Below, piece after piece: positions 32,886 through 39,815 of a DNA stretch of 40,225 bases (positions within the stretch are counted from its first letter, which is position 1; each line of letters starts with the position of its first letter). The stretch lies in NCBI GenBank assembly GCA_021200935.1, contig JAJQFY010000227.1, forward strand, positions 1-40,225, in the 5' to 3' direction. The DNA comes from Oscillospiraceae bacterium. Its GTDB lineage: Bacteria > Bacillota > Clostridia > Oscillospirales > Oscillospiraceae. The notes under the pieces are model-generated. The model had not been told where the DNA came from. It saw nothing but the letters and a program-made list of their open reading frames with translations, and searched no databases. The position numbers were made by a program, and so were the translations under genes.

Positions 32886-32962
32886 CCGGGTGTGGCGAAG
32901 TTTGGTATCGCGCCTGAATGGGGTTCAGGAGGCCGCTGGTTCAAGTCCAGTCACTCGGACCA
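32886..32962 (+). tRNA. tRNA-Pro(GGG), CCA encoded
   Basis: CCGGGTG/CACTCGG acceptor, GCG/CGC D-stem, CCTGA-ATGGGGT-TCAGG anticodon arm (anticodon GGG), GCTGG-TTCAAGT-CCAGT T arm, ACCA end. Confidence 0.95.
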
Positions 32963-32972
32963 AATCATAATA

Positions 32973-33016
32973 ATCCGAACCCATTATCCAAGTGGGTAAT
33001 GGGTTCGGATTTTTTT
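32973..33016 (+). terminator. intrinsic terminator after tRNA-Pro
   Basis: atccgaacccatta / taatgggttcggat 14-bp stem followed by tttttt. Confidence 0.88.
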
Positions 33017-33031
33017 ATTGCCGTAATCGTT

Positions 33032-33112
33032 TCATAAGCAGGTCTGGCAGGGATCGGCGTCTTCTTCGGGGAAGACAGCGCCCCCATGCGGATCTGCTTT
33101 TTCCGTTGTCAT
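33032..33112 (-). CDS. possible 26-aa small ORF or truncated gene remnant
   Basis: MTTEKADPHGGAVFPEEDADPCQTCL*; strong SD GGAGGGATAGACAGAAATG. Confidence 0.3.
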   Translation of the reverse strand: MTTEKADPHGGAVFPEEDADPCQTCL

Positions 33113-33196
33113 TTCTGTCTATCCCTCCAAAGAAAGCGCTTTTCCGCAACAGTGACAAACAGAAGGGAATACCTACGTATCGAAGACCTTATGATT

Positions 33197-34079
33197 CTAT
33201 TTTTTGCAAAAATTCTCAACAAAAAAAATAAACCGATTGGTTTGCTCAGTACACTCCCCATGAATCCAATAGAATCCCATTTCATAGCTCGCGGAACTTT
33301 CCAGCGGAATAACTGCACAATCATTACGAAAATCATAAGCAACATGTTCAGGGAGCGATACAACCCACATTCCCATCTTAACCATAAGATGAAGATTATT
33401 TAGGGTGATATCCTGTTGAGTCTGTGGTATATCCGCAAATGGATAGGTTACTAAAGTCCCCTGCGGTATTAATCTTAGCTCTTTTGTCGGCTGTGCATTG
33501 AGGCAGTTTACCAACTCTTGAGCTGAAATACTCTCTAAAGATGCAAAAGGATGTTTTTTTGAAGTTACGACGAAGAAATGGCCAGATTCTGTAGGAAGAA
33601 AATCTAGGATACCCGCCTCTTTTGATGTTTTTTCGATTGAAAAACTAAATCCAACGTCGTAATGACAAGTAAGCATTTGGGATACAAAATCTTGTGGCTG
33701 AGCAAATGTTATATTAAGAGTAACGTCAGGGTGACTTTCCTTGTATTTCTCACAAATCGTATGAAATTGTGGTACATAAAAATCCACACTAAGGATGTTT
33801 AATTCTTGTTTTCTTCGTTTTCCCAGAAGATGAATTTCTTTTTCTAATTCAGCCCAATCCGTCAATATAGCAAGCCCTCGTGTATATAAAAGCTCCCCCA
33901 GCCGCTGTACATGCGAGCGAATGCCCAGCGCGTGTCAAAAGCTCACAATCAAGTTCTCTCTCAATTTGCTTAATGCTTTTGCTAATTGATGAGTGACTAA
34001 TATAAAGCTGCTCTGCGGCGCGACTGATACTTTGCGCTTCTACGACGGTTATGAAATATCGCAACTGCTCTAAAGTCAT
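33197..34079 (-). pseudogene. LysR family regulator, frameshifted (HTH part 33849-34079; effector domain 33197-33865)
   Basis: MTLEQLRYFITVVEAQSISRAAEQLYISHSSISKSIKQIERELDCELLTRAGHSLACTAAG then a frame change to GELLYTRGLAILTDWAELEKE...; one extra G in the G5 run (C5 on +, 33895-33899). Confidence 0.85.
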
Positions 34080-34147
34080 AGTGGTTTCCTCCTTCTGCAC
34101 TCTGAGTGCTTAGGTTTATAATATACGCACTTGATTAATTTTTGCCT

Positions 34148-34176
34148 ATTATACCACAATATCGACAAAAATGCAA
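34148..34176 (-). promoter_or_regulatory. promoter for the LysR gene
   Basis: Reverse strand TTGCAT (34171-34176) - 17 nt - TATAAT (34148-34153). Confidence 0.5.
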
Positions 34177-34205
34177 CGCCCCCTGCAAACACAGCAAGGG
34201 GCGTT
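34175..34205 (-). terminator. terminator-like hairpin after the permease gene
   Basis: aacgcccc ... ggggcgtt; reverse strand followed by GCATTTTTG. Confidence 0.55.
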
Positions 34206-34215
34206 ATGAAGTAAT

Positions 34216-35534
34216 TTAATACATTATGCAGGCCATAGCAGTAGCAATGCTGGCGGTGATCAAGGGTATGATAACCGTTACAACGAAAAGATACTTATAC
34301 GCTTGTTTATGAGTATAACCAAACACATTTAACTGCATATAAATCATGCTGCTATGCGGCAAGGAATCAGTAACTGTTGCGGTCATAGTTATAATACGAT
34401 GCAACGCACCTGCATTAGCGCCTGTAGCCAACAGTGATTCACCTATTGTAGTACAGAACAAAACCTGGGAAGAAACCCCATCTGCAATCAGTGCGGAAAT
34501 AATTAACATCGCCACAAATGCAAGAATATGCGGACTGAGATTTACATTCAGGATAGTGTCAATAATGAAATCACAGGCAGCAGTGGATTGAATAACAGCG
34601 CCAAAGCCCGCTAACATGGAGCAACCGATAACAAGTGGAAAGGCATTTGACATTCCATTGCCAACGGAGTTGAGTTTCTTGCCTTTGGGAAGGCTTTTCC
34701 AGCGGATAATTAGCAGCCACAAAATTGCAATAATCTGACAAATGATAACAGATTGTGTAGAAGTGAAGCCAATTACATTTGTAAAAATCCAACAACCGGC
34801 AACAACTATTAGAATCGGAGTAAATGCGAACCAGACAGGAGGAAGCTCACAATCTTCGGCATCAAGAGCGGCATCGTCACAGAATGGAGAGGGAACAAAG
34901 TGATCTCCTTTTTTTCCGCTTGTTTTATTAAGTAAAAAGTATAAGCAATAACAAGCGCGCTGCCAACGATGACACCAACGATTCCCAACGCTGCGCCAGC
35001 ATAGATTGTCGTTCCTAAATAGAATGTTGGCATTAGATTAGTAAAGCCTGGGAAGCCTGGACAGGAAAATTGAACGACCGCTCCAATTCCGGTAGTAGCG
35101 GCAAGATATATGTACAGCGGCTGATCTGCTTCCTCCGCAATTGCGGAGCAAACGGAGATAACGACAAACACGCTGGTAGCCATTCCTGAAAAGCCTATAA
35201 AAACATTTAACAGCATACACAGAATAGGGCCGCTCTTCTTACCCGCATATCGTATGATAAAACGTCCAAGCGATTTCGCACAGCCGGTAGCAGCAATTAC
35301 CCCGCCTAATGCGCCTCCTGTCAAGTACACCAAAACACTGTTCTGAAAGGTTGAAGCTGTTCCCTCTGAAAATACATCAACAAAATTGCTGATCCATGTT
35401 CCTTCAATTGTTAAGGCAACAATTGCCACACAAAGAAGAATAATTGGAATTTGAGGAAACCCCTTCATGGATAAGACAATAAACAAGACCAAAGAGATCA
35501 AAAGTGCAATAGCTGATACAGTAACACTTGTCAT
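34216..35534 (-). pseudogene. GntP-like permease, interrupted by a -1 frame change (possible programmed frameshift)
   Basis: N part 34809-35534 and C part reading through VPSPFCDDAALDAEDCELPPVWFAFTPILIVVAGCWIFTNVIGFTSTQ...SLPHSSMIYMQLNVFGYTHKQAYKYLFVVTVIIPL; frame change at A7 (T7 on +, 34909-34915). Confidence 0.75.
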
Positions 35535-35573
35535 TTTTGTGAACCTTCTCTTTCCTTTATCAAGCAGTTCAGT

Positions 35574-36485
35574 TTAGTCAGCAAATCGCTTTCTTACATT
35601 ATAACGCCATATGCCATTGCCATCCTTAAAGAATATATCAGATTCTGTTTTGGCTTCCGGCGGGCAATAAGTGTTTTCATCGTCAAGTGTCGCATAAGGA
35701 CGAGGCGGTGTAACTGTAAGCTGAACGGGCTGTACAGGCGACCAGCCGTGATGTATTGTATGACGGTAAGAACGAGGCGGCGGCATTGCATCACTAAAGG
35801 AAGTATATTCCTCAATATCCCCTTCAGGCGCCTTACATATATCTGGATATATATCCTGATATGGAACATTCCAACCAGGCAAATGAGGGGCAGGCACTTT
35901 TTCGCATAGTTGCTGATAAGGCTGGTTCGCGTTATTCACCGAATCGAAATCATCACCAACACTTCCGTCTGGAGCTACGAGTTCATGCAAAAACTTCCAG
36001 TGCTTTGTCTCTTCGTCGTATATGAAATCTGCACCATACTGTTCATTCGTGATTGAACCCCATGGTTTAAGATCTTCATTATAGTGAATATACCACATAC
36101 CATGACAGATAAAAGACATTCGGCAGCTCATTCCATCATCTGCTACCTCAACAACGCCGGAGTTAAGTTCGTTAAATTCGGTGAATCCGATAATTCCAGA
36201 CTCAACACCAGCGGTTTCGGGGTAAATCTTGGGCATTTCCACATCATAAATGAGATGCTTAATTTCTAAATTTACAAATTGCGCGTGAACTATTTCCTTC
36301 CAGCCTTTTAGCCAGCCCCACATAAAGCCCCAGCCGCAGTCATCACTCCGATCCCATATTGTTGCAAATTCTTCCGGCTGATGACAAGACATTGCCAACA
36401 ACTGATGAATCGCGTGTAATCTCTCACATTCTATACTTCCACACGCATTGTGCATACGTTGTTCAATGGTAAGTTCTTTGTTCAT
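35574..36485 (-). CDS. NTF2/SnoaL-like protein C (tandem paralog)
   Basis: 303 aa; GMWYIHYNEDLKPWGSITNEQYGADFIYDEETKHWKFLHELV aligns with the two upstream neighbours. Confidence 0.65.
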   Translation of the reverse strand: MNKELTIEQRMHNACGSIECERLHAIHQLLAMSCHQPEEFATIWDRSDDCGWGFMWGWLKGWKEIVHAQFVNLEIKHLIYDVEMPKIYPETAGVESGIIGFTEFNELNSGVVEVADDGMSCRMSFICHGMWYIHYNEDLKPWGSITNEQYGADFIYDEETKHWKFLHELVAPDGSVGDDFDSVNNANQPYQQLCEKVPAPHLPGWNVPYQDIYPDICKAPEGDIEEYTSFSDAMPPPRSYRHTIHHGWSPVQPVQLTVTPPRPYATLDDENTYCPPEAKTESDIFFKDGNGIWRYNVRKRFAD

Positions 36486-36494
36486 GTATCCTCC

Positions 36495-37322
36495 TTAATA
36501 ACCCCAAGCCTCATAGGATGCCATACGAGCTTCCCAATTAACGTCCATGCAATCATCTCTCAATCCAGGATGGCCTTCTGGAGCGTAACTATTATCAGGT
36601 CCATAAGAAGCATGTGCACATGGAAAAGAAGGCCACCCGTCTGCTGAATGTGTACTTGGAAAATGAGTAATCATTTTAATTGTAGGATTACCTGCTTCAA
36701 ATTCCTGACGAAACGGCGTCTGTTCAGGTCTAGGGTAAAGTGGTTGGCTGCTGACCTTTTCCCCAGCAAGACAGACCATATCATATACCTCTGCCCAATG
36801 CCAGATTTTCCAATCATCATTCTCTTTAATCAAATCCACACCAGCGCGTCCAAAAATATGATAACCATCCGCGCTGCCATCAGCATGTCCCAAGGTTTCC
36901 TCTCCTGAAATAAACCACATTCCCTGCGCGGTTTCCCCATCTTCAGCCAAGTAAATTACCGGCGTACTGGCAGTACGCAGAATGGATGCTCCTTGACCAA
37001 GCGTACAGTTCTCGTTCGGATAGGCTTGTTGATATTCAGCCTGAACAGCTTTTCGATTCTCTAAATGCCGATGAATGTAATAATCTTCGATGGCATCCAT
37101 TCCCACATAGAAGCCCCAGGGGGATCCAAATGAAGCGGTATTTCTGTTTTTCGAAAAAGACACCCAACATCTACGACACCCCTCAGCCCGCTGATCCATG
37201 TTATAATAATATATTTTGCGGCTTATAACTTCCTTGCAGCGTTCCACTTCCATCATGCGGTCAAACTGTTCTTCGGGCGTGAAGAGTTGACGTTCATACC
37301 ATTTTACCTTTTTATTAATCAC
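36495..37322 (-). CDS. NTF2/SnoaL-like protein B (tandem paralog)
   Basis: 275 aa, GTG start overlapping the previous stop by 4 nt; GMWFISGEETLGHADGSADGYHIFGRAGVDLIKENDDWKIWHWAEVYD. Confidence 0.7.
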   Translation of the reverse strand: MINKKVKWYERQLFTPEEQFDRMMEVERCKEVISRKIYYYNMDQRAEGCRRCWVSFSKNRNTASFGSPWGFYVGMDAIEDYYIHRHLENRKAVQAEYQQAYPNENCTLGQGASILRTASTPVIYLAEDGETAQGMWFISGEETLGHADGSADGYHIFGRAGVDLIKENDDWKIWHWAEVYDMVCLAGEKVSSQPLYPRPEQTPFRQEFEAGNPTIKMITHFPSTHSADGWPSFPCAHASYGPDNSYAPEGHPGLRDDCMDVNWEARMASYEAWGY

Positions 37323-38068
37323 TTTGCAGTCACCTCCTGTGAAAATCCATAGCTAAATGTTTCAGAGAAAGTTGAATATTGTTCTGGCGGCAGAGGATAT
37401 TTAGGAAACGGACGTTTGCTTCCATAGTACTCACAAAGGCATACCTCAACATCCGGGGATGGAGGTACTTTTGATTTCAAGGGCGCAAAATCCGGGATAC
37501 TAACTTCCGTTTGAGCCTCTTCCCACCATGTTTTTCCCTGCGGAGTCTTAATTTCTTCAAGATACTGCATATGCCAGATTTTCCAGGAGTTATTTTCATT
37601 GATAAAATCAACTGCGAATATGCCAAAGAACCATTGACCGTATGGCCCAGCAGCAGAGTACTCAACCTTCTGCCCGGCGCAAGTCCACATACCCTTGGCC
37701 GTTTGCTCATCCTCCGCAATCGTAACTAAATCCGTAGAAAGTGAATAGACATCCATTGATCCAAGTCCTTTTTCTTGCGGACTTAAATGCTCCGTTAAAC
37801 TTGGAAATCTAGTTCTAATAATAAGATCTGCACAGGCGGTTCTGTCAGCCAATGATTGGAAATGTGATGCAACGGATTCGGCACCTAAATACCACCCATT
37901 ATTTACGCCCAAGCAAACTTGATCAGAACAGCTCCAATATTCGCGAAATATGCTATCTTCATTTTTGTGGAATAAATCCATAGAAAATCTACCAATAAGG
38001 TTTTTTATTTCTCGGAGTTCCTCCCACCTGTTCAGGGTTTGTTCTCGGCTATGGCTATTTACAAACAA
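37319..38068 (-). CDS. NTF2/SnoaL-like protein A (tandem paralog)
   Basis: GMWTCAGQKVEYSAAGPYGQWFFGIFAVDFINENNSWKIWHMQYLEE. TTG start at 38068 with AGGAGG at 38078-38083 preferred over ATG 38089. Confidence 0.7.
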   Translation of the reverse strand: MFVNSHSREQTLNRWEELREIKNLIGRFSMDLFHKNEDSIFREYWSCSDQVCLGVNNGWYLGAESVASHFQSLADRTACADLIIRTRFPSLTEHLSPQEKGLGSMDVYSLSTDLVTIAEDEQTAKGMWTCAGQKVEYSAAGPYGQWFFGIFAVDFINENNSWKIWHMQYLEEIKTPQGKTWWEEAQTEVSIPDFAPLKSKVPPSPDVEVCLCEYYGSKRPFPKYPLPPEQYSTFSETFSYGFSQEVTAK

Positions 38069-38104
38069 TACCTTCCGCCTCCTATTCATTTATGTGTTAA
38101 TTAT

Positions 38105-38133
38105 ATTATAAACAAACAATTCGTAGATGTAAA
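38105..38133 (-). promoter_or_regulatory. sigma-A promoter driving the NTF2-like cassette
   Basis: Reverse strand TTTACA (38128-38133) - 17 nt - TATAAT (38105-38110). Confidence 0.7.
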
Positions 38134-38136
38134 GCG

Positions 38137-38334
38137 CTATAAATGAACAACTTTGTGCGTATTAAGCACAGTTTGTGCTGCGTCACTTTGTCTGATTTTT
38201 TGATTTCCAAAAACTTGGAAACGCTTAATCTGTTCCGGTGCTTTATCACTATAGCCCCTGCCGATGGTTCCCCTGAGACATTCCTGTATAGTATCAATTT
38301 CTTTCTCTACACAAATCGTTCGCTTGCGTTCCAT
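38137..38334 (-). CDS. possible 65-aa small ORF
   Basis: MERKRTICVEKEIDTIQECLRGTIGRGYSDKAPEQIKRFQVFGNQKIRQSDAAQTVLNTHKVVHL; SD GGAGGGAGTATTGTT before ATG. Confidence 0.4.
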   Translation of the reverse strand: MERKRTICVEKEIDTIQECLRGTIGRGYSDKAPEQIKRFQVFGNQKIRQSDAAQTVLNTHKVVHL

Positions 38335-38429
38335 AACAATACTCCCTCCATATTTGACAGCGAAAAAACTATCAATTATGAAGGGAGTACAATATTATTG
38401 GGGAAACGCGTTTGTTTTTTACAGCGGCA

Positions 38430-39815
38430 TTACTTGCCCACGCAGAAGCGGGCGAAGATGCCGTTGGTTACGTCCTCCCGGACGGAGCGGCCTGACAGCT
38501 CGCCCAGGGCGGTCAAGGCCCCCTCTACCTCGGTCAGGACGGCGTCGGGGGGGAATCCCCCCTCCATGGCCTGCCGGGCGGCGCGGACATAGTCCAGGGC
38601 GCGGGCCACGGCCTCCGCCTGGCGGGGATTGGTGAGAATCTCCCCGGCAGGAACGGATGCCTCCGCGGGAAACAGGGCGGCCACGGCGGCCTCCAGCGCC
38701 TCCAGGCCCGCCCCGGTTTTGGCGCTGATGGGAATGGCCCCCGGCGGCGACCAGCGCTGGGGCAGGTCGGATTTATTGCACAGAAGGACGGCGCGGGGCG
38801 CCTTTTCCGCCGCCGCCAGCACCTCCCTGTCCTCCTCCGTCTCCGGGGCGGAGCCGTCGAACAGGGCCAGCACAAGCCCTGCCCCCTCCGCCGCCTGGCG
38901 GGCGCGGGCCACGCCCAGGCGCTCCACCGGGTCGTCCGTCCGGCGGATCCCGGCGGTGTCTGTCATACGCAAAAGCACGCCCCCCAGAATGGCCCGCTCC
39001 TCCACCGTGTCTCTGGTGGTGCCGGGAATATCGGTGACGATGGCCCGCTCATAGCCCAAAATGGCGTTCAGCAGGGAGGACTTGCCCGCGTTGGGGCGGC
39101 CCAAGATGGCGCAGGGGACGCCGCTTTTCATCACGCTGCCCCGGCGGAAGGTGGCATGAAGCCGCTCCAGGGTCTCCTCCGCCTCCCCCAGGGTGTGGGC
39201 GTAGCTTTCCATCTCGAAGGGCTCGATGTCCTCGTCCGGGTAGTCGATGACCGCATGGTAATGGGAGCAGATGGCCGCGAGGCTTTCATATATCCCGTCC
39301 GTCCGGCGGCGAATGGCCCCGTCAAGCTGGGCGGCGGCGTTTTCCGCCGCCTGCTCCGTCTCCGCGTCGATCAGGTCTATCACCGCCTCCGCCTGGGTCA
39401 GATCCATGCGGCGGTTAATAAAGGCCCGCTTGGTAAACTCCCCGGCCTGGGCCTGGCGCGCCCCGGCGGCAAAAAGGCTTTCAAGCCCCAGGCGCAGAAC
39501 CACCGGGGAGCCGTGACACTGCAATTCCGCCGTGTCTTCCCCTGTATAGCTGTTCGGCCCTCTGGATACAGTAGCCAGGCACTGGTCAAGGAGCGCTCCC
39601 CCTGGGGCCGCCAGGCAGCCCAGCACAAGCTGGCGGTCTGGCCGCTGGGACATGGCAGCCCCCCGCAGGGGGGTGAACACCTTGTCCACCACGGTCAGCG
39701 CCGCCGGGCCGCTGATCCGTATGATGCCGATGGCGGACAGTCCGCTGCCGGTGGCGATGGCCGCAATGGTATCGAAGGCGGCGGACTGTCCCTCCCGATC
39801 GGAGGCTTGGCTCAT
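38430..39815 (-). CDS. mnmE: tRNA uridine-5-carboxymethylaminomethyl modification GTPase MnmE
   Basis: DTIAAIATGSGLSAIGIIRISG; GRPNAGKSSLLNAILGYERAIVTDIPGTTRDTVEE; DTAGIR; C-terminal FARFCVGK. Confidence 0.97.
   Translation of the reverse strand: MSQASDREGQSAAFDTIAAIATGSGLSAIGIIRISGPAALTVVDKVFTPLRGAAMSQRPDRQLVLGCLAAPGGALLDQCLATVSRGPNSYTGEDTAELQCHGSPVVLRLGLESLFAAGARQAQAGEFTKRAFINRRMDLTQAEAVIDLIDAETEQAAENAAAQLDGAIRRRTDGIYESLAAICSHYHAVIDYPDEDIEPFEMESYAHTLGEAEETLERLHATFRRGSVMKSGVPCAILGRPNAGKSSLLNAILGYERAIVTDIPGTTRDTVEERAILGGVLLRMTDTAGIRRTDDPVERLGVARARQAAEGAGLVLALFDGSAPETEEDREVLAAAEKAPRAVLLCNKSDLPQRWSPPGAIPISAKTGAGLEALEAAVAALFPAEASVPAGEILTNPRQAEAVARALDYVRAARQAMEGGFPPDAVLTEVEGALTALGELSGRSVREDVTNGIFARFCVGK

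What the first reader, a model, noticed from the sequence alone, without database searches (positions are those of the whole stretch)
35574..38133. Candidate undescribed cassette: three tandem diverged NTF2/SnoaL-like paralogs with their own promoter, a GntP-like permease and a LysR regulator
Three consecutive genes encode proteins of about 250-300 aa that differ overall but align through one core: A GMWTCAGQKVEYSAAGPYGQWFFGIFAVDFINENNSWKIWHMQYLEE; B GMWFISGEETLGHADGSADGYHIFGRAGVDLIKENDDWKIWHWAEVYD; C GMWYIHYNEDLKPWGSITNEQYGADFIYDEETKHWKFLHELVAPD. This resembles the C-terminal strands of NTF2/SnoaL cone-fold proteins (established: the fold includes dehydratases and isomerases such as BaiE and scytalone dehydratase). 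Each also has an extra Pro/Tyr-rich C-terminal tail (e.g. PLPPEQYSTFSETFSYGF, TPPRPYATLDDENTYCPP) not typical of small SnoaL proteins. They are followed on the same strand by a GntP-like organic-acid permease and a LysR regulator, which suggests uptake and conversion of a small organic acid or plant/host metabolite, possibly by a heteromeric enzyme. Function and novelty are inference.
Basis: partly seen in the sequence, partly recalled or inferred. Interest (0 to 1): 0.75.

Follow-up and report, generated by a model that had tools for sequence, protein, structure and literature searches.

The report
Three-gene NTF2-fold enzyme module
The three neighbouring genes belong to a conserved three-gene set, always in the same order and present in up to about 14 copies per genome in one family of anaerobic (partly rumen) bacteria, that probably encodes one enzyme built of three related subunits for breaking down imported organic compounds; the copy in this window is an unusual, horizontally acquired one whose transporter and regulator genes are both interrupted.

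Summary
A (37319-38089), B (36495-37322) and C (35574-36485) are adjacent, tightly coupled ORFs of the NTF2/SnoaL fold. Their closest solved relatives, by sequence and predicted structure, are the LdpA gamma-formaldehyde lyases; the C model is low-confidence, B was not modelled. The GntP-like permease and LysR genes are present but each carries a frameshift. The whole is a 5.4-kb low-GC island between tRNA-Pro and mnmE.

The cassette as described is not what is conserved. The A-B-C triplet is: in nine genomes of the family, 61 of 68 A genes have C downstream on the same strand with room for one B. Copy number reaches 14-15 in a 3.1-Mb genome. A, B and C are separate clades (bootstrap 100) whose trees mirror each other (r 0.90-0.95). 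Neighbours vary.

The catalytic His of LdpA is kept in 54/57 C, 37/53 B and 1/56 A. The three C exceptions, one of them the window's, form one subclade that lacks it in A, B and C.

Best reading: a hetero-oligomeric, cofactor-free NTF2-fold lyase with a non-catalytic A subunit. Complex formation, chemistry and substrate are inferred, not shown. New variant of a known kind.

The parts
37319..38089 (-). gene A, NTF2/SnoaL-fold subunit A (true start may be TTG at 38068)
   Evidence: ORF; AlphaFold pLDDT 86, Foldseek best LdpA E 3.6e-11; clade A bootstrap 100; Tyr at the position of LdpA His97
36495..37322 (-). gene B, NTF2/SnoaL-fold subunit B; 4-nt overlap with A
   Evidence: ORF; SnoaL_4 E 0.0017, below the Pfam cut-off; profile of B clade hits LdpA E 6.5e-5; Arg at the His97 position
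35574..36485 (-). gene C, NTF2/SnoaL-fold subunit C (divergent: Ala31, Gly97, Asn105, Gln149, Ala171 where nearly all C have His, Arg, His, Arg, Cys)
   Evidence: ORF; profile of C clade hits LdpA E 2.9e-4; low-confidence model (pLDDT 55) still best matches LdpA E 4.7e-5; consensus positions
38105..38133 (-). sigma-70-like promoter of the triplet, 11/12 match, 17-bp spacer
   Evidence: pattern match only
34216..35534 (-). GntP-like permease gene, interrupted by one frameshift at the 7-base run 34909-34915
   Evidence: Pfam GntP E 3.8e-9 on the first piece; frames
33197..34079 (-). LysR-type regulator gene, interrupted by a frameshift near 33870
   Evidence: LysR_substrate E 5.1e-11; HTH part in another frame
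34174..34206 (-). terminator-like hairpin between permease and LysR gene
   Evidence: pattern match only
33024..38429 (.). low-GC island (GC about 0.42, third-position GC of A/B/C 0.37-0.39) inserted between tRNA-Pro and mnmE
   Evidence: GC profile, GC3; homology to sister genomes stops at about 33014-33023 on the left and at 38430 on the right
32886..32962 (+). tRNA-Pro(GGG) with its own terminator-like hairpin (32972-33011) at the island's left edge

Best explanation
A, B and C are three subunits of one hetero-oligomeric enzyme of the NTF2/SnoaL fold, most likely an A:B:C trimer like the homotrimers of this fold (LinA, gallate decarboxylase AGDC1). It is a cofactor-free lyase (dehydration or retro-aldol type) acting on an imported, probably plant-derived ring or aryl compound. 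In the standard module C carries the catalytic histidine, B usually does, and A almost never does, so A would be a structural or regulatory subunit. In many other loci the unsaturated product would then be reduced by the neighbouring ene-reductase. Multiplication of the triplet with exchange of transporters and regulators would adapt it to many substrates. The window's copy belongs to a divergent subclade that lacks that histidine in all three subunits; it was probably acquired horizontally, and its permease and regulator are interrupted, so its own activity may differ or be failing. Shown here: gene order, fold (A by model, B and C by profile), nearest solved relatives, co-divergence, residue patterns, island boundaries. 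Inferred: complex, chemistry, substrate.
For: Order: 61 of 68 A hits in nine genomes have C on the same strand downstream with a gap centred on about 0.8 kb, i.e. one B; of the seven others one is a true A-C pair and the rest have no partner on the assembled contig, several at contig ends; among held loci 47 runs read exactly ABC, one AABC, one AC, and the rest are partial runs in the same order. Co-divergence: A, B, C clades bootstrap 100 each; distance correlations 0.94, 0.95, 0.90, none of 10,000 permutations as high. Tight coupling in the window: 4-nt overlap A/B, 9 bp B/C. Fold and kin: sequence profiles of all three find LdpA (8abt-8abw) in the PDB: A 1.3e-8, B 6.5e-5, C 2.9e-4; structure of A: LdpA 3.6e-11, LinA 8e-7, BaiE 1.4e-6. 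Division of labour: the position of LdpA His97 (8abu is the H97Q mutant) is His in 54/57 C, 37/53 B, 1/56 A. Neighbours: ene-reductase (Oxidored_FMN + Pyr_redox, nearest solved NCR 3e-70 and 2,4-dienoyl-CoA reductase) in 21 of 37 loci, FAD_binding_2 in 9. Precedent: MonBI-MonBII, where MonBI alone is inactive and the heterodimer is the enzyme (PMC13311259).
Against: No complex was observed or modelled. One locus (G747:C17, L206) has A and C without B, so B is not indispensable everywhere. Co-divergence and fixed order also fit three separate enzymes acting in series. The acidic partner of the His in helix 1 is not kept in A (alignment). The window's own triplet has none of the three His, so a LdpA-type mechanism cannot be assumed for it. 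Nearly all data come from draft genomes.
Confidence: 0.55

Rival explanations
1. A, B and C are three separate homo-oligomeric enzymes that catalyse successive steps of one pathway (as BaiE and BaiI, both of the NTF2 fold to my knowledge, sit in one operon).
For: Conserved operon order and co-inheritance would look the same; the profiles of all three match a full NTF2 domain; active-site residues differ between the three.
Against: A lacks the catalytic His in 55 of 56 sequences; intact pairing over 48 unique triplets with different transporters; the shared C-terminal motif in all three suggests a common architecture.
Confidence: 0.3
2. The triplet is not catalytic but binds or sequesters small molecules (NTF2-fold binding proteins) in a transport or sensing system.
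For: Variable transporter neighbours (ABC, TRAP, GntP, MFS); the window's subunits lack the catalytic His.
Against: Near-invariant His105, Arg149, Glu148, Tyr150, Asp173 in C and frequent linkage to ene-reductases point to chemistry.
Confidence: 0.1
3. The window's own cassette (as distinct from the family) is a decaying, horizontally acquired remnant with no current function. This rival concerns this copy only and can be true together with the best explanation of the module.
For: Permease and LysR genes both frameshifted; island of foreign composition; departure from otherwise near-invariant residues in C.
Against: A, B and C are all intact over 2.5 kb with good ribosome sites; the same residue departures occur in two other genomes (L056 with an intact triplet, L060), so they are a lineage trait rather than decay; frameshifts in draft assemblies may be errors, and the ene-reductase of another cluster of this genome is likewise split (L021).
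Confidence: 0.25

Closest known systems
LdpA / PcfL gamma-formaldehyde lyases of sphingomonads (NTF2 superfamily; 8abt, 8abu, 8abv, 8abw)
   Same: Best sequence match in the PDB for A, B and C and best structural match for the models of A and C; similar length (about 250 aa); canonical C and most B keep the His97 equivalent
   Different: 16-18% identity over the structural match; LdpA is encoded by one gene, here there are three co-inherited genes; the window copies lack the His; no lignostilbene dioxygenase step expected in an anaerobe (inference)
BaiE bile-acid 7-alpha-dehydratase and the bai operon (with BaiCD/BaiH ene-reductases)
   Same: NTF2-fold dehydratase next to Oxidored_FMN enzymes in many related loci; structural match of A 1.4e-6
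   Different: Lower similarity than LdpA; no ene-reductase in the window; no other bai genes seen beside the loci read; three subunits
MonBI-MonBII epoxide hydrolase heterodimer
   Same: Known heteromeric enzyme made of two subunits, one inactive alone (PMC13311259)
   Different: Two subunits, polyether biosynthesis; homology to A/B/C not tested here
LinA, scytalone dehydratase, gallate decarboxylase AGDC1
   Same: Cone fold, His-Asp dyad; LinA and AGDC1 are trimers (PMC7862292)
   Different: Homo-oligomers encoded by one gene; LinA and the scytalone dehydratase match are about 150 aa, much shorter than A/B/C

Membership tests
NTF2-like / SnoaL_4 (PF13577) | alpha+beta cone fold | tested here: met
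   Model of A pLDDT 86, helix and strand order of the fold, 245 PDB matches at E<=0.001; C same topology at low confidence; B by profile only
NTF2-like / SnoaL_4 (PF13577) | score above the Pfam gathering cut-off | tested here: not met
   Window A 14.4 bits, B 18.8, C no match, cut-off 24; homologues elsewhere in the genome pass
LdpA/PcfL gamma-formaldehyde lyase | nearest relatives among solved proteins | tested here: met
LdpA/PcfL gamma-formaldehyde lyase | catalytic His97 | tested here: not met
   Window A Tyr, B Arg, C Asn; canonical C 54/57 His
LdpA/PcfL gamma-formaldehyde lyase | release of formaldehyde from a diaryl substrate | not testable with these tools
   needs an assay
BaiE bile-acid dehydratase | operon with BaiCD-like ene-reductase | tested here: not met
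   No such gene in the window island; present near many related triplets
Heteromeric enzymes of related subunits (MonBI-MonBII type) | adjacent, co-inherited related subunits, one lacking catalytic residues | tested here: met
Heteromeric enzymes of related subunits (MonBI-MonBII type) | physical complex required for activity | not testable with these tools
   multi-chain prediction and bench work not available here

The most novel reading that the evidence does not exclude
An undescribed class of obligate three-subunit NTF2-fold enzyme (A non-catalytic, B and C differentiated) that has radiated to 14 or more loci per genome in one family of anaerobic gut/rumen bacteria as a modular toolkit for many plant-derived compounds, with the window's subclade using a different catalytic residue.
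Probability: 0.4. Interest if true: 0.75.

Novelty: new variant of a known kind. Interest (0 to 1): 0.6.

Why it matters
NTF2-fold lyases of the BaiE/LinA/LdpA type are known as one-gene enzymes. A three-gene version that keeps its order, co-diverges, divides its active sites among subunits and multiplies to more than a dozen copies in 2-3 Mb genomes would be a large uncharacterised enzyme resource of gut and rumen anaerobes. It gives a directly testable question: is A:B:C one enzyme, and what does it degrade?

Tried and rejected
Pfam and NCBIfam on the window proteins alone gave almost nothing; only family profiles resolved them. A conserved A-B-C-GntP-LysR cassette was sought and rejected: the window's permease has only 27-31% identity matches in four sister genomes, and the nearest triplets, L056 and L060, have TRAP genes downstream instead; the GntP plus LysR next to the other triplet type (L020/L068) belongs to a different paralogue group. 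Restriction to the genus looked true at first (10 of 35 genus genomes, none of 294 others in the order sample or 398 in the phylum sample), but a denser family sample found 11 of 106 genera. Natural gene fusion as proof of contact: the only two-domain ORF (A-B in L060) differs from its sister L056 by one base in a G run, so it is weak. Integration at tRNA-Pro: no repeat of the tRNA end was found at the other border and no integrase gene lies in the island. Literature searches in the held open-access library for tandem or heteromeric SnoaL proteins in Oscillospiraceae or rumen found nothing specific; the LdpA paper itself is not held.

Full report
Observation. The three ORFs are real and lie where stated: A 37319-38089, B 36495-37322, C 35574-36485, all on the minus strand. 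A and B overlap by GTGA, C follows after 9 bp, and AGGAGG-like sites precede the likely starts. A's better start is probably TTG at 38068. A strong promoter match sits at 38133-38105. The permease and LysR sequences are there but each is broken by one frameshift, the permease at a 7-base homopolymer; a terminator-like hairpin separates them. Whether these are real or assembly errors cannot be told here.

Island. GC falls from about 0.65 to 0.42 between 33.0 and 38.4 kb, and third-position GC is 0.37-0.39 in A, B and C against 0.84 in mnmE. In sister genomes the left flank stays homologous to about 33014-33023, just past tRNA-Pro(GGG) and its terminator, and the right flank starts exactly at the end of mnmE, 38430. 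So this looks like an inserted segment next to a tRNA gene, without an integrase or att repeat. In no sister genome were the two flanks found joined, since they lie on different contigs there.

Fold and kin. On their own A, B and C score below the Pfam SnoaL_4 cut-off or not at all. Alignments of homologues (A1 = C-type, A2 = B-type, A3 = A-type) find, among all PDB sequences, LdpA (8abt-8abw) as the only relevant matches: A 1.3e-8, B 6.5e-5, C 2.9e-4. The AlphaFold model of A (pLDDT 86) has the NTF2 layout and its best Foldseek matches are LdpA (3.6e-11), with LinA and BaiE among the next. The model of C is poor (pLDDT 55) but LdpA again comes first. B was not modelled. LdpA and its homologue PcfL are NTF2 lyases acting on lignin-type dimers; LdpA dehydrates to a quinone methide, and both release formaldehyde and give stilbenes (PMC12997858, PMC11323797).

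The conserved unit. Searching the own genome and relatives and reading the loci showed that A-B-C recurs. In a tree of the paralogues A, B and C are three clades (bootstrap 100 each) with nearly the same branching order; pairwise distance correlations are 0.94 (A-B), 0.95 (A-C) and 0.90 (B-C), and no permutation of 10,000 reached them. The window's A, B and C each group with L056 and L060 at or next to the base of their clade. In the family, 19 of 401 sampled genomes and 11 of 106 genera have a match to the A profile (E-values are per genome, a few of the matches are weak and may be relatives rather than true A, and only part of the family is held). In nine of these genomes there are 68 A and 65 C hits; 61 A have C downstream on the same strand with a gap of 687-1673 bp, mostly about 0.8 kb. 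G750 has 14-15 and G884 12-14. One true exception has A and C without B (G747:C17, L206). The two loci found by the separate scan of named genomes are both recorded as MAGs with rumen-project style names (RUG12379, RUI539); the rumen origin is my reading of those names.

Division of labour. The structure 8abu is the H97Q mutant of LdpA with bound substrate, which marks His97 as catalytic. The equivalent position, 12 residues before the Asp of the DG turn, is His in 54 of 57 C, 37 of 53 B and 1 of 56 A, where it is mostly Lys or Arg. The only three C without it (Asn) are the window, L056 and L060, whose B has Arg. The window's C also departs at other near-invariant C positions (31, 97, 149, 171), while keeping H27, E148, Y150, D153, E168 and D173. 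A W-x-I-W-H motif near the last strand is conserved in A and B.

Neighbours. Around the triplets the recurrent genes are an Oxidored_FMN/Pyr_redox ene-reductase (21 of 37 loci), FAD_binding_2 flavoproteins, dipeptide-type or SBP_bac_1 solute-binding proteins and ABC permeases, TRAP, MFS or GntP transporters, LysR, AraC or PucR regulators and a roughly 600-aa beta-helix-like protein. The window island has no ene-reductase.

Mechanism. Related enzymes with one gene are homotrimers in several cases (LinA, AGDC1; PMC7862292), and heteromeric enzymes with one inactive partner exist (MonBI-MonBII, PMC13311259). I therefore read A:B:C as a hetero-oligomer, probably a trimer, with C (and B) catalytic. 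This is inference: no complex was modelled, since only single chains could be predicted. The chemistry (dehydration or retro-aldol lyase) rests on kinship with LdpA, BaiE and LinA; the substrate class (plant-derived ring compounds) rests on the presumed rumen setting and on ene-reductase linkage, and is weak. For the window's copy the LdpA mechanism cannot be assumed because its His is missing.

Verdict. New variant of a known kind, interest 0.6.

Noticed in passing
L053:926-2785, L054:6259-8073, L183:12221-14044, L186:698-2524: A roughly 600-aa protein with beta-helix-like repeats, mostly without Pfam match, recurs next to triplets (7 loci); function unknown.
   Followed up: partly
L020:11599-13587 and L068:2715-4703: A second, separate kind of SnoaL triplet (three closer paralogues, His/His/Tyr at the LdpA His97 position) with an intact GntP-like permease and LysR regulators next to it.
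   Followed up: partly
L022:555-1550, L065:8484-9437, L066, L067, L069, L070, L071: Single-gene relatives of about 317-378 aa with hydrophobic N-termini that look like signal peptides, all with the His; sampled members form their own clade (bootstrap 100).
   Followed up: no
L187:2377-3981 and L021:5862-7253: Some C proteins carry an extra C-terminal domain of about 200 aa after the SnoaL part, and several A/B/C tails or neighbours contain collagen-like Gly-Gly-Pro runs (also L054, L058, L206).
   Followed up: no
L206:2602-4183 (G747:C17): A directly followed by C with no B between: the only clear exception to the ABC order.
   Followed up: partly
window 38143-38340, minus strand: Low-GC 65-aa ORF fragment (MERKRTICVEKEIDTIQECLRG...) between the triplet promoter and mnmE, possibly a remnant of another gene.
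   Followed up: no
L021:3836-5786: The ene-reductase of another triplet cluster in the window's genome is split into three ORFs, so frameshifts are not limited to the window's island.
   Followed up: no
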